Below, in pieces: positions 28,186 through 34,482 of a DNA stretch of 64,000 bases (its first letter is position 1; every line of letters starts with the position of its first letter). A program made the translations under genes and the position numbers. Where the stretch lies: contig JAUIHI010000033.1 of NCBI GenBank assembly GCA_030432295.1, positions 1 through 64,000 of the forward strand, in the 5' to 3' direction. This DNA comes from Anaerolineae bacterium (lineage in GTDB: Bacteria; Chloroflexota; Anaerolineae; Caldilineales; Caldilineaceae). The notes under the pieces are model-generated. The model was not told the DNA's origin. It ran no database searches and worked only from the letters and a program-made list of their open reading frames with translations.

Positions 28186-29436
28186 TTACCCGTGACGGCG
28201 CATAAATCGCTGCATCCGTTCCAGCGCAATTTCGATGTTCTCCTGGCTGGCCGCATAGGCACAGCGCACGTGCCCTTCGCCGCCCCGACCAAAGGCACTG
28301 CCGGGGATCACGGCCACCTGCTCCTCCAGCAACAGTTTCTCGGCAAATTCGTGCTCGTCCATTCCCGTGCGCTTGACGCTGGGAAAGGCGTAGAACGCGC
28401 CCTTTGGCTCGAAACAGTCCAGACCGATCTCATTCAGTCCGCCCACAATCAGACGGCGGCGGGTGTCGTAGCTGGCAACCATCTCCTGCACGGCCAGTTC
28501 CGCCACCGGGTCTGTGAGGGCCGCCAGCGCCGCTGCCTGCCCTGCGGTGGGCGCGGACATAATCAGATACTGGTGAATCTTGCGCATCGCGCCCAGCAGG
28601 TCCGCGGGGCCAGCCGCGTAGCCGATGCGCCAGCCGGTCATCGCGTAATCTTTGCTCATTCCGCCCAGGTGAATCGTGCGTTCGGCCATACCGGGCAGAC
28701 TGGCAAACATTACGTGCTCGTGTTCGCTGTAGACCAATCGATCGTAGATTTCGTCGGAGATGACCAGCAGGTCGTGCTTTTCGACAACTTTGGCAATCGC
28801 CATCAACTCCTGCCGGTTCATCACCGCGCCGGTGGGATTGCAGGGATAGCCAATCAGCAGCGCCTTTGTGCGGGGGGTGATGGCAGCTTCGATCTGCTCC
28901 GGTGTCACCACAAAATCGTTGGCCGCATAGGTGGGCACATCGACAACTGTGCCCCCGGCCAGAATTACATCCGCAGTGTAGGAGACGAAGCAGGGCTGGG
29001 GCACAATCACCTCATCGCCGGGGTCGAGAATAGCCTGCATGGCCAGATACATAGCCTCGCTCACGCCGACGGTAATCAGCACTTCCTGTTCCGGGTCATA
29101 GGCTGGCCCGCCGTAGCGTCGCTGCAACATTTCGGCCACGGACGCACGCAGTTCCAGCACGCCCGCGTTGGAGGTATAGGCTGTGTCGCCCTGGCGGATG
29201 CTCTCCAGCCCGGCCTGCAAAATCGGGGCGGGCGTGACAAAATTCGGCTCGCCGATGCCCAGGCTGATCACATTTTCCATTGTGGCGGCGATGTCGAAGA
29301 AGCGGCGGATGGCTGAGGGAGCCACCCGATGGATACGTTCGCTCAGGCGGCTGTTGTGGGGTCGGCGCAAGGTGCTATGTCCATTTGTGGGGATGGATTG
29401 ACCCTTCTCGCGGGTCAGTACGGGTGTCGTATTCAT
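28186..29436 (-). CDS. Class I/II PLP-dependent aminotransferase
   Basis: 416 residues. It is a fold-type I aminotransferase using pyridoxal phosphate. Features: VISLGIGEPNFVTPAPI at the start of the core, the cofactor-binding region VLITVGVSEAMYLAMQA, the substrate/cofactor loop IGYPCNPTGAVM, Asp in LLVISDEIYDRLVY, and the Schiff-base lysine in HLGGMSKDYAMTGWRIGY. The C-terminal R-C-A-Y motif (GHVRCAYAAS) contacts substrate carboxylate. It resembles the AspC/AlaA-like subgroup often annotated as aromatic or aspartate aminotransferase; the specificity cannot be told. The N-terminal 30 residues are probably flexible. It stands alone between repeat-rich spacers. Confidence 0.88.
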   Translation of the reverse strand: MNTTPVLTREKGQSIPTNGHSTLRRPHNSRLSERIHRVAPSAIRRFFDIAATMENVISLGIGEPNFVTPAPILQAGLESIRQGDTAYTSNAGVLELRASVAEMLQRRYGGPAYDPEQEVLITVGVSEAMYLAMQAILDPGDEVIVPQPCFVSYTADVILAGGTVVDVPTYAANDFVVTPEQIEAAITPRTKALLIGYPCNPTGAVMNRQELMAIAKVVEKHDLLVISDEIYDRLVYSEHEHVMFASLPGMAERTIHLGGMSKDYAMTGWRIGYAAGPADLLGAMRKIHQYLIMSAPTAGQAAALAALTDPVAELAVQEMVASYDTRRRLIVGGLNEIGLDCFEPKGAFYAFPSVKRTGMDEHEFAEKLLLEEQVAVIPGSAFGRGGEGHVRCAYAASQENIEIALERMQRFMRRHG

Positions 29437-29732: not shown

Positions 29733-31208
29733 TCATGCAAGAATCGGTCTCCGCGCGTGCCACTCGGTCGTCTGTTCGTAGGCGTGGGCCGCGCGCAAAA
29801 TTGTCTCTTCGCCCAGCGACGGCCCTAAAATTTGCAGGCCAATGGGCAGGCTATTGCGGTCAAAGCCGCAGGGGATGCTGATGCCGCACATCCCGCTCAG
29901 GTTCAGGCTGACGGTGAAAATATCGGCCAGATACATCGCGAGGGGATCGTCGGCCTTTTCGCCGATGGGGAAGGCGGTAGTGGGCGAAGTGGGCGAGACG
30001 ATCACATCCACATCGGCAAAGGCCGCCTCAAAATCCCGTTTGATCAGCGTGCGCACCTGCTGGGCTTTGCCGTAATAGGCGTCGTAGTAGCCCGCGCTCA
30101 GCGCGTAGGTTCCCAGCATAATCCGCTGCTTCACCTCCCGGCCAAAGCCCCGCCCCCGCACCTGCCGGTAGTTGTCCAGCAGCCGATCCGCCTTGCCGCC
30201 TGGGCCAAAACGGATGCCGTCGAAGCGAGAAAGGTTGGCACTGGCCTCGGCGGTGGCGATCAGATAGTAGACGGGCAGCGCTTTGTCCGTGTTGGGCAGG
30301 TGGATGGGGACGATCTCTGCGCCCAGCCCGGCCAGGTGCTCGATAGCGGTCCGCACCGCGGTCTCCACATCCGGCTCCATCCCGTCGATGAAATATTCGG
30401 CTGGCACGCCCACCCGCAGCCCGTGGATGTCGCCGGTCAGGCTGGCCGTGTAGTCGGGGACCGGTGCTGGCAGGCTGGTGCTGTCATGTGCGTCGTGGCC
30501 CGCCATCGCATTCAGAATCAGCGCGGCGTCTTCCACATCTTTGGTGATCGGCCCGATCTGGTCCAGACTGCTGCCGTAGGCGATCAGCCCGTAGCGGCTG
30601 ACCCGGCCATAGGAGGGTTTCATTCCTACTACGCCGCAGAGGGAAGCGGGCTGGCGCACGCTGCCGCCTGTGTCCGTGCCCAGGCTGGCCAGGGCCTCGT
30701 CCGCAGCCACAGCCGCCGCGGAGCCACCGCTGCTTCCGCCGGGGACCCGGTCCAGATTCCATGGGTTGTGGGTGGTAAAGTAGCCGCTGTTTTCTGTGCT
30801 GGAACCCATTGCAAATTCGTCGGTGTTGGTCTTGCCGATCACCAGCGCGCCCGCGTCTTTCAATCGCTGCACCGCTGTGGCTGTGTAGGGAGGGCGGTAG
30901 CCTTCCAGAATTTTGCTGCCCGCGGTGGTGACGATCCCTTCGGTGGAAAGCACATCTTTGATCGCCAGGGGAATCCCCAGCAGCGGACGGCTGTCGCCCT
31001 CTGCCCGCAAACGATCGGCTGCTTCCGCCTGTTCCAATGCCTGTTCGCCCGCTACAGTCAGATAGGCGCAGACCTGTCCATCTACCTGCTCTATGCGGGC
31101 CAGGACGGAGCGGGTCAGGTCCACGGCGGAGAAGTCGCCAGAGGTCAGTCCAGCCACCGCCGCGTGTACGGTCAGTTGATAGAGTTCAGTTGCTGTTGTG
31201 TTTTTCAC
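29733..31208 (-). CDS. gatA: Asp-tRNA(Asn)/Glu-tRNA(Gln) amidotransferase subunit A
   Basis: 491 residues. It is the glutaminase subunit of GatCAB, which converts mischarged Glu-tRNA(Gln) (and Asp-tRNA(Asn)) to the correct amide. Amidase-signature residues: catalytic Lys in [10 protein letters not shown], the cis-Ser and nucleophile Ser in [19 protein letters not shown] followed by [14 protein letters not shown], and [20 protein letters not shown]. The start is GTG 31208, preceded by GAGG at seven bases. It follows gatC by 66 bases; that spacer contains a 10-of-11-base hairpin (31236-31265). gatB is not in the window. The pair suggests that the organism lacks a glutaminyl- or asparaginyl-tRNA synthetase, an inference from the family. 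Confidence 0.95.
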
Positions 31209-31274: not shown

Positions 31275-31565
31275 CTATTCTTCAAAGATAGCGCGCACCC
31301 GGAAATAGCCATTTTTGGCATCAGCTGCGTTGGCAACAGCGGCTTCGTTGGGTAGACACTCGCCCAGTTCGTCGTCCCGCATTACATTGCTCAACGGCAA
31401 GACGTAGGGCGTGGGCGGCACGCTGCTGGTATCCACGCCCTGAATCTGTTCGGCATAGTCCAGAATGGCGGAAAGTTGCAGCGCATAGTGGTTGATTTCG
31501 TCGTCGCTCAGTTCCAACTTGGCCAGTTCGGCCACGTGGCGCACTTCTTCGATGCTCAGTTTCAT
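31275..31565 (-). CDS. gatC: Asp-tRNA(Asn)/Glu-tRNA(Gln) amidotransferase subunit C
   Basis: 96 residues from ATG 31565 (GGGAG seven bases upstream). GatC wraps around GatA and stabilises the GatCAB complex. The pattern MKLSIEEVRHVAELAKLELSD, AILDYAEQIQGVDT, PPTPYVLPLSNVMRDDEL, and the C-terminal AKNGYFRVRAIFEE (usually G-x-F-x-V-P-x-I/V-I/L) fits the family in length and order. An upstream start at 31592 would add unrelated residues. It is preceded by tandem intrinsic terminators and a candidate structured RNA, which may regulate the gatCA unit. Confidence 0.93.
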   Translation of the reverse strand: MKLSIEEVRHVAELAKLELSDDEINHYALQLSAILDYAEQIQGVDTSSVPPTPYVLPLSNVMRDDELGECLPNEAAVANAADAKNGYFRVRAIFEE

Positions 31566-31592: not shown

Positions 31593-31623
31593 AAAAAAAC
31601 GCCGTGGCAGTCATCCACGGCGT
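31593..31623 (-). terminator. Second of two tandem intrinsic terminators upstream of gatC
   Basis: On the minus strand ACGCCGTGG (31615-31623) pairs with CCACGGCGT (31599-31607) over 7 bases, followed by seven U (31593-31599). It ends 28 bases before gatC. A full terminator so close to a start codon suggests attenuation. Confidence 0.8.
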
Positions 31624-31636
31624 CGCAACTTACAAC

Positions 31637-31668
31637 AAAAACGCCGTGATTTGCATGTGCTCACGGCG
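31637..31668 (-). terminator. First of two tandem intrinsic terminators upstream of gatC
   Basis: On the minus strand CGCCGTGA (31661-31668) pairs with TCACGGCG (31642-31649) over 11 bases, followed by UUUUUG. Its arms share the GCCGTG core with the second terminator, so cross-pairing between the two hairpins is possible. Confidence 0.75.
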
Positions 31669-31783
31669 CTGGTGACAAACAAAATACCGCTACCGGAGCA
31701 CGGGGCTAGCTGCCCATGCGGCCGGTGCGCAGGCAATCCTGCGTTCAAATTCTCCAACACATTTCTGTAGTATTGTCATAATG
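31637..31783 (-). ncRNA. Candidate structured leader or small RNA upstream of gatCA
   Basis: Transcription from the promoter at 31790-31818 would start near 31783. The first bases, UGACAAUAC (31778-31770), can pair with GUA plus UUGUCA at 31687-31673, closing a domain (P1). Inside are P2, a perfect 6-base-pair hairpin CGCAGG-AUUG-CCUGCG (31743-31728), and P3, a long hairpin (ACCGG with CCGGU, GCA with UGC, GGG with CCC; 31726-31692). Two intrinsic terminators follow directly, then gatC. This three-way-junction plan with a terminator is what a riboswitch or attenuator looks like; it could equally be a free ~140-base small RNA. It does not match a class I know (compared by eye with T-box, ZTP, SAM, glycine, TPP, FMN, c-di-GMP). 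Confidence 0.6.
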
Positions 31784-31789
31784 ACGACC

Positions 31790-31818
31790 AGTATAGACGC
31801 CTCAACGCCAGATGTCAA
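31790..31818 (-). promoter_or_regulatory. Near-perfect sigma70 promoter for the gatCA leader
   Basis: On the minus strand TTGACA (31818-31813) and TATACT (31795-31790) are separated by exactly 17 bases. The predicted start near 31783 lies five bases before the first pairing segment of the leader RNA. Confidence 0.85.
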
Positions 31819-31852: not shown

Positions 31853-31892
31853 AAAAAAGCCCCCCGACAAAATAGTCGGAGGGGCCTTTTTT
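31853..31892. terminator. Bidirectional intrinsic terminator
   Basis: A GC-rich stem (CCGAC with GTCGG, extended by CCC with GGG beyond one mismatch) is flanked by AAAAAA on the left and TTTTTT on the right, so it can act on both strands. It insulates the gatCA promoter from the region to its right, although no gene is recognised there that would need it. Confidence 0.75.
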
Positions 31893-34432: not shown

Positions 34433-34482
34433 TGAGATGCTGAGATGCTGGGGTTCGAACCCCAGCATCTCAGCATCTCATT
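34431..34482. repeat. 52-base perfect palindrome at the SDR stop codon
   Basis: The 26-base left half (AATGAGATGCTGAGATGCTG then GGGTTC) is exactly complementary to the right half, centred on TTCGAA, and begins at the last two bases of the SDR stop codon. The unit GATGCTGAGATGCTG is related to the repeat at 60744-60782 (GATGCTGGGATGCTG). It may form the 3' hairpin of the SDR transcript. Confidence 0.9.

What the first reader, a model, noticed from the sequence alone, without database searches (positions are those of the whole stretch)
31593..31818. Undescribed-looking structured RNA between a consensus promoter and gatCA
On the minus strand, TTGACA-N17-TATACT is followed within five bases by an RNA domain closed by UGACAA/UUGUCA, with two internal hairpins (6-bp CGCAGG/CCUGCG and a 35-base ACCGG/CCGGU hairpin), then two intrinsic terminators with the same GCCGTG core, then gatC 28 bases later. 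This is the layout of a riboswitch or attenuator in front of a tRNA-amidation operon. The shared terminator core would permit alternative pairing. I know of no described class with this sequence.
Basis: partly seen in the sequence, partly recalled or inferred. Interest (0 to 1): 0.75.

Follow-up and report, generated by a model that had tools for sequence, protein, structure and literature searches.

The report
Alanine-codon leader peptide controls gatCA operon
Ahead of an operon for tRNA amidation in Caldilineaceae bacteria sits a tiny gene full of alanine codons whose translation probably decides whether transcription stops or continues, so that the operon, which includes a probable alanine-making enzyme, is switched on when charged alanine tRNA runs short.

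Summary
The stretch is real and regulatory, but it is not a riboswitch-like RNA. The RNA begins with an overlooked, leaderless short ORF (31779-31690, minus strand; MTILQKCVGEFERRIACAPAAWAASPVLR*). The same layout precedes gatC in 41 Caldilineaceae genomes, one copy each, and is absent before gatC in 40 sampled genomes from about 37 other families of the class. In 20 representatives, 55% of the 11 codons before the last three are Ala, against 7.5% in the rest of the peptide. The last codons (segment A) pair with the 5' arm (B) of hairpin 1. Compensatory changes keep this pairing: 0 of 20,000 partner permutations match it; A:D and A:E controls are null. Hairpin 1's 3' arm (C) can pair with the 5' arm (D) of hairpin 2, the only hairpin that is a U-tailed terminator in nearly all genera. 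Best explanation: a ribosome-mediated transcription attenuator sensing Ala-tRNA. A ribosome stalled on Ala codons frees A, giving A:B, then C:D, then read-through; a ribosome at the stop masks A, giving B:C, D:E and termination. The operon is gatC-gatA-aminotransferase. No Rfam match. New variant of a known kind; alanine specificity and the relay are inferred, not shown.

The parts
31790..31818 (-). sigma-70-type promoter TTGACA-17-TATACT
   Evidence: the same promoter precedes the leader in nearly all family genomes
31690..31779 (-). leaderless leader-peptide ORF, ATG 10 nt after the -10 hexamer, 29 codons MTILQKCVGEFERRIACAPAAWAASPVLR + TAG
   Evidence: in-frame ORF with Ala-rich C-terminal part in 41 genomes of 15 genera
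31708..31734 (-). regulatory codon run (codons 16-24: GCC TGC GCA CCG GCC GCA TGG GCA GCT; 6 of 9 Ala)
   Evidence: Ala 122/221 in the 11-codon window of 20 representatives vs 27/358 in the N-part; rare codon GCA 58/122 vs 12/125 in the operon genes
31693..31701 (-). segment A, GUGCUCCGG (codons V-L-R before the stop): antiterminator strand
31657..31666 (-). segment B, CCG(U)GAGCAC: pairs with A (antiterminator) or with C (hairpin 1)
31641..31669 (-). hairpin 1 (B:C); U-tailed here, but without a U-tract in most genera, so primarily an anti-antiterminator
31641..31649 (-). segment C, UCACGGCGU: 3' arm of hairpin 1, alternative partner of D
31615..31624 (-). segment D, GACGCCGUGG: 5' arm of the terminator
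31593..31624 (-). hairpin 2 (D:E) + U-tract: intrinsic terminator, U-tailed in nearly all genera
31275..31565 (-). gatC
   Evidence: TIGR00135, 83.4 bits vs cut-off 47.1
29733..31208 (-). gatA
   Evidence: TIGR00132, 612 bits vs cut-off 481
28186..29436 (-). PLP class I/II aminotransferase, third gene of the operon; best family PRK07682 (below its cut-off); proposed alanine transaminase
   Evidence: adjacent to gatCA in 38 of 44 family genomes, contig ends in the other 6

Best explanation
It is a ribosome-mediated transcription attenuator with a leaderless, alanine-codon-rich leader peptide, controlling gatC-gatA-aminotransferase. RNA polymerase starts at about 31783-31779 and a ribosome loads on the 5'-terminal AUG. 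With enough Ala-tRNA the ribosome runs to the UAG and covers segment A (the last three codons). Hairpin 1 (B:C) then forms, segment D stays free and the terminator D:E forms, so transcription stops before gatC. When Ala-tRNA is scarce the ribosome stalls on the Ala codons about 20-30 nt upstream. A is exposed and pairs with B as soon as B is made; C, deprived of B, pairs with D; E has no partner and polymerase reads through. Shown here by comparison: ORF, Ala run, A:B, B:C and D:E helices with compensatory changes, single copy, operon linkage. Inferred: translation, stalling, Ala-tRNA as signal, the C:D relay step, kinetic control, and the alanine-forming role of the aminotransferase.
For: ORF from an ATG 6-10 nt after the -10 box in 32 of 41 genomes (26-90 nt downstream in most of the others), ending at the same place relative to the hairpins. 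N-terminal part not conserved in amino acids, while Ala is 122/221 in the 11-codon window vs 27/358 upstream (p 2e-37) and 27/220 or 6/220 in the other two frames; all four GCN codons used; GCA, rare in the operon genes (12/125), makes 58/122 (p 2e-11). A:B: own pairing -15.7 vs -11.4 kcal/mol with other genera's partners, 0/20000 permutations as good, controls A:D and A:E null; several pairs switch between GC, UA and CG; 96.4% of cells paired, 12 cells changed on both sides, 0/500 shuffles. B:C and D:E: 96.2% paired, 15 double-change cells, 0/500. C:D: 98.2% paired, 6/500 for score. Nascent-chain folding with a stalled-ribosome mask gives A:B in 15/15 representatives and A:B + C:D at the end of D in most; with a ribosome at the stop B:C forms in most. 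CM search: one strong hit per genome, always before gatC, including genus g16 not used to build the model (E about 1e-8). Aminotransferase best matches PRK07682 and is adjacent in 38/44 genomes. Genera g8 and g16 lack a recognisable alanine dehydrogenase.
Against: No expression, ribosome-profiling or term-seq data. At full-length equilibrium D:E wins in most genera even with a stalled ribosome, so read-through needs kinetic control, as in classical attenuators. The C:D statistic partly follows from B and D resembling each other (B:E scores similarly). The window's genome also has alanine dehydrogenases, so alanine supply does not depend on this operon alone. The aminotransferase scores below the PRK07682 cut-off (515 vs 620) and its substrate is untested. 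Why gatCA should follow alanine supply is unexplained. Some leaders start 26-90 nt downstream of the promoter, so leaderless initiation is not universal. Two genomes of the family (G003, G018) have lost the leader ORF.
Confidence: 0.8

Rival explanations
1. Metabolite-binding riboswitch or T-box: the RNA upstream of the terminators is an aptamer (or binds uncharged tRNA directly) and controls the terminator without translation.
For: Transcription-terminator layout before an amino-acid-related operon; moderate folding of the 5' domain (z -1.9).
Against: No Rfam match. Proposed stems P1/P2 not conserved in the genus; O:A pairing only weakly above permutations (704/20000). The ORF stays open with no amino-acid conservation in its N-part and an Ala-only signal in one frame.
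Confidence: 0.06
2. Arrest peptide or general translation sensor: the nascent peptide itself stalls the ribosome in response to a small molecule or to slow translation, as for erm or whiB7-type leaders, rather than to Ala-tRNA supply.
For: Conserved C-terminal V-[LSP]-R before the stop; alanine-rich nascent chains; whiB7/wblC uORFs respond to antibiotics and amino-acid starvation (PMC11550727).
Against: V-L/S/P-R varies exactly as demanded by A:B pairing, and genus g16 has ELSAGG instead; the peptide varies in nearly every non-Ala position and only the number and position of Ala codons is kept.
Confidence: 0.1
3. The Ala run is a by-product of a GC-rich RNA strand (GCAGC repeats) needed for folding; the attenuator senses translation rate or another codon (e.g. 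Asn/Gln, fitting gatCA).
For: GCAGC-type sequence recurs; O strand can pair with A in several genera; Asn codons occur in some leaders.
Against: Ala is enriched in one frame only and with all four codons; O:A pairing is not clearly maintained by covariation; Asn 7/221 and Gln 4/221 in the window are unremarkable.
Confidence: 0.08
4. Constitutive terminator cluster and small RNA: a short transcript made from the strong promoter, with gatCA transcribed by read-through and no regulation.
For: Two terminator-like hairpins in tandem in this genome.
Against: Maintained A:B alternative pairing and Ala-rich ORF in 15 genera; hairpin 1 has no U-tract in most genera.
Confidence: 0.03

Closest known systems
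Amino-acid leader-peptide transcription attenuators (E. coli trp, his, thr, ilv, pheA; Actinobacteria trp, ilvB, leuS, PMC1262725)
   Same: Short ORF with a run of codons for one amino acid, antiterminator formed when the ribosome stalls, terminator when it reaches the stop, upstream of an operon with an enzyme for that amino acid (putative here).
   Different: Codons are alanine; leader ORF is mostly leaderless; five alternating segments (A:B, B:C, C:D, D:E) instead of three pairings; operon starts with gatCA; phylum Chloroflexota.
whiB7 uORF attenuator of mycobacteria (alanine starvation; cited in PMC13236596 and PMC11550727: Poulton et al. 2024, itself not held)
   Same: uORF-mediated transcription attenuation tied to alanine limitation, with an aminotransferase (aspC) in the circuit.
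   Different: There the attenuator controls a transcription factor and also responds to antibiotics; here an Ala-codon run sits directly before the operon holding the aminotransferase. No sequence relation tested or expected.
Polycysteine leaderless short ORFs of mycobacteria (Canestrari et al. 2020, known by title from PMC13236596)
   Same: Leaderless sORF with a run of one amino acid's codons acting as attenuator of a biosynthetic operon.
   Different: Cysteine; described as translation attenuation (PMC13236596) without conserved terminators (PMC1262725); here a conserved intrinsic terminator and alternative pairings.
mgtCBR tandem attenuators of Salmonella (PMC3641672, abstract only)
   Same: More than one attenuation step in one leader.
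   Different: Two ORFs; here one ORF and chained pairings.

Membership tests
Leader-peptide (ribosome-mediated) transcription attenuator | Short ORF immediately upstream with a run of codons for one amino acid near its end | tested here: met
Leader-peptide (ribosome-mediated) transcription attenuator | Antiterminator strand that a ribosome at the stop codon would mask and a stalled ribosome would leave free | tested here: met
   Segment A lies in the last three codons; conserved A:B pairing; masks
Leader-peptide (ribosome-mediated) transcription attenuator | Intrinsic terminator between leader ORF and first gene | tested here: met
   Hairpin 2 + U-tract in nearly all genera
Leader-peptide (ribosome-mediated) transcription attenuator | Operon makes the amino acid (or its tRNA) encoded by the run | tested here: inconclusive
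   Aminotransferase in the operon, best family PRK07682, below cut-off; substrate unknown
Leader-peptide (ribosome-mediated) transcription attenuator | Read-through rises when that amino acid is limiting | not testable with these tools
   Needs reporter or term-seq experiment
Riboswitch / Rfam family | Match to a curated RNA family | tested here: not met
Riboswitch / Rfam family | Conserved aptamer helices upstream of the expression platform | tested here: not met
   P1/P2 not conserved; O:A weak
Arrest peptide | Conserved amino-acid sequence of the stalling peptide beyond codon run and RNA constraint | tested here: not met

The most novel reading that the evidence does not exclude
A dedicated alanine-tRNA attenuator placed directly before an alanine transaminase operon, working by a two-step relay of alternative pairings (A:B releases C, C captures D) and started from a leaderless ORF; it also ties tRNA amidation (GatCA) to alanine supply. 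It would be the first leader-peptide attenuator described in Chloroflexota, as far as the held literature shows.
Probability: 0.6. Interest if true: 0.65.

Novelty: new variant of a known kind. Interest (0 to 1): 0.57.

Why it matters
Leader-peptide attenuators for Trp, His, Thr, Phe and the branched-chain amino acids are textbook; I found none for alanine directly in front of a biosynthetic operon in the held literature and none in Chloroflexota. The chained pairing extends the three-pairing textbook model and makes a clear prediction testable by compensatory mutations. The leader also predicts the substrate of an unassigned aminotransferase, and raises the question why the tRNA-dependent amidotransferase subunits share its control.

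Tried and rejected
Rfam at gathering and permissive thresholds: nothing. Riboswitch/T-box: rejected as above. The same leader before gatC in 40 genomes from about 37 other families of the class: absent. Near the aminotransferase in Anaerolineae loci outside the family: absent by a strict leaderless scan (that scan also missed several true family members, so it is weak evidence). Other copies in the genomes: none credible (remaining hits are weak, E above 0.001, or opposite-strand echoes of the same palindromic hairpins). Asn/Gln as the sensed amino acid: no enrichment. The O:A 'pause hairpin': weak, not claimed. The first C:D count was off by one column and was repeated; one structure string was a character short. 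The Canestrari and Poulton papers and a B. subtilis AlaT/YugH paper are not held.

Full report
Observation. On the minus strand, TTGACA-17-TATACT (31818-31790) is followed by an RNA with a hairpin at 31669-31641, a U-tailed terminator at 31624-31593 and gatC from 31565. The 191-nt RNA folds better than shuffles (z -3.3). No Rfam family matches.

Relatives. DNA and GatC searches gave the gatC upstream region of 44 genomes of the same family; named relatives are Caldilineaceae MAGs, including one filed as Litorilinea aerophila. Forty-one carry the layout: strong promoter, ORF starting 6-10 nt after the -10 box in 32 of them (mostly 26-90 nt downstream in the others), Ala-rich end, two hairpins, gatC. 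G003 and G018 keep promoter and a terminator-like hairpin but have lost the ORF; G002's short contig shows no leader. A covariance model (R1) finds one strong match per genome, always before gatC, in 41 genomes and in 24 of 24 good-quality ones, including genus g16, which was not in the model (E about 1e-8). It is absent before gatC in 40 genomes sampled from about 37 other families of the class.

The ORF. Its N-terminal part changes freely in amino acids (single-nucleotide codon differences mostly non-synonymous), so the product is unlikely to act as a protein. In the 11 codons before the last three, 122 of 221 residues in 20 representatives are Ala, against 27 of 358 in the N-part and 27/220 and 6/220 in the other frames. 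All four Ala codons occur, and GCA, rare in the operon's genes (12/125), makes up 58/122. This is how regulatory codons of attenuators behave.

The alternative pairings. Segment A (GUGCUCCGG, the last three codons) pairs with segment B (CCG-U-GAGCAC), the 5' arm of hairpin 1. Across genera A begins GUGCUC, GUGUCC, GUGCCC, UUGUCC, GCGUCC or CUGUCC (g16), and B changes to match. Own A:B energies average -15.7 kcal/mol against -11.4 with other genera's B; none of 20,000 permutations is as good, and A:D and A:E are null. Column counts give 96.4% paired cells and 12 double changes, 0/500 shuffles. B:C and D:E are also maintained. C:D is possible in nearly every genome (98.2% of cells; 6/500 for the score), but part of that signal follows from the similarity of B and D. 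Hairpin 1 lacks a U-tract in most genera, so it is not mainly a terminator; hairpin 2 is the terminator.

Mechanism. With ribosome masks on nascent chains, a ribosome stalled on the Ala run lets A:B form in all 15 representatives at the end of B, and C:D form in most at the end of D; a ribosome at the stop gives B:C in most. At full length D:E usually wins at equilibrium, so the switch must be kinetic, as in classical attenuators (established knowledge). The parity is right: stall gives A:B, C:D and read-through; completion gives B:C, D:E and termination.

Operon and signal. gatC and gatA are secure. The third gene is an aminotransferase whose best family is PRK07682 (515 bits, cut-off 620). 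From my own knowledge this family includes B. subtilis YugH/AlaT, reported as an alanine transaminase; I could not check this in the held library. It is adjacent to gatCA in 38 of 44 family genomes, the contig ending in the other six, and linked to gatC within about 5 kb in many other families of the class, where the gatC upstreams sampled show no such leader. Genera g8 and g16 lack a recognisable alanine dehydrogenase, while the window's genome has two. Alanine as the signal is therefore the best reading, with the amidotransferase subunits as co-regulated passengers or a second target.

Known relatives. It works like, and on every sequence feature that could be settled belongs to, leader-peptide transcription attenuators; one defining feature (the operon makes the amino acid) is inconclusive and the response to alanine is untested. 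Alanine-linked attenuation is known for the whiB7 uORF of mycobacteria (PMC13236596, PMC11550727), and leaderless polycysteine sORFs exist there too. A survey from 2010 knew leader-peptide systems from Proteobacteria and Actinobacteria and added Firmicutes (PMC2965389). Searches for an alanine leader peptide or for Chloroflexi attenuation found nothing relevant, in a library that lacks most subscription papers.

Verdict. A real, conserved attenuator; new variant of a known kind.

Noticed in passing
31860-31883: U-tailed hairpin flanked by A- and T-runs (could terminate in both directions) just upstream of the promoter, similar in congeners G004-G006 together with a CAACCCAACC-like block; no minus-strand gene obviously ends there.
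   Followed up: no
34433-34480: 20-bp palindrome with a T-rich tail between two plus-strand genes.
   Followed up: no
family genomes g8, g16: No alanine dehydrogenase above cut-off, unlike most other genera of the family; the operon's aminotransferase may be their main alanine route.
   Followed up: partly
G003 (L008), G018 (L043): Leader ORF deleted but promoter and one terminator-like hairpin retained before gatC.
   Followed up: partly
class-level genomes: gatC and this aminotransferase are linked in many Anaerolineae families that lack the leader, so the gene linkage is probably older than the attenuator.
   Followed up: partly
21296 (+): Only other promoter + near-5'-end short ORF found in the window scan (GTG start, no terminator); probably chance.
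   Followed up: no
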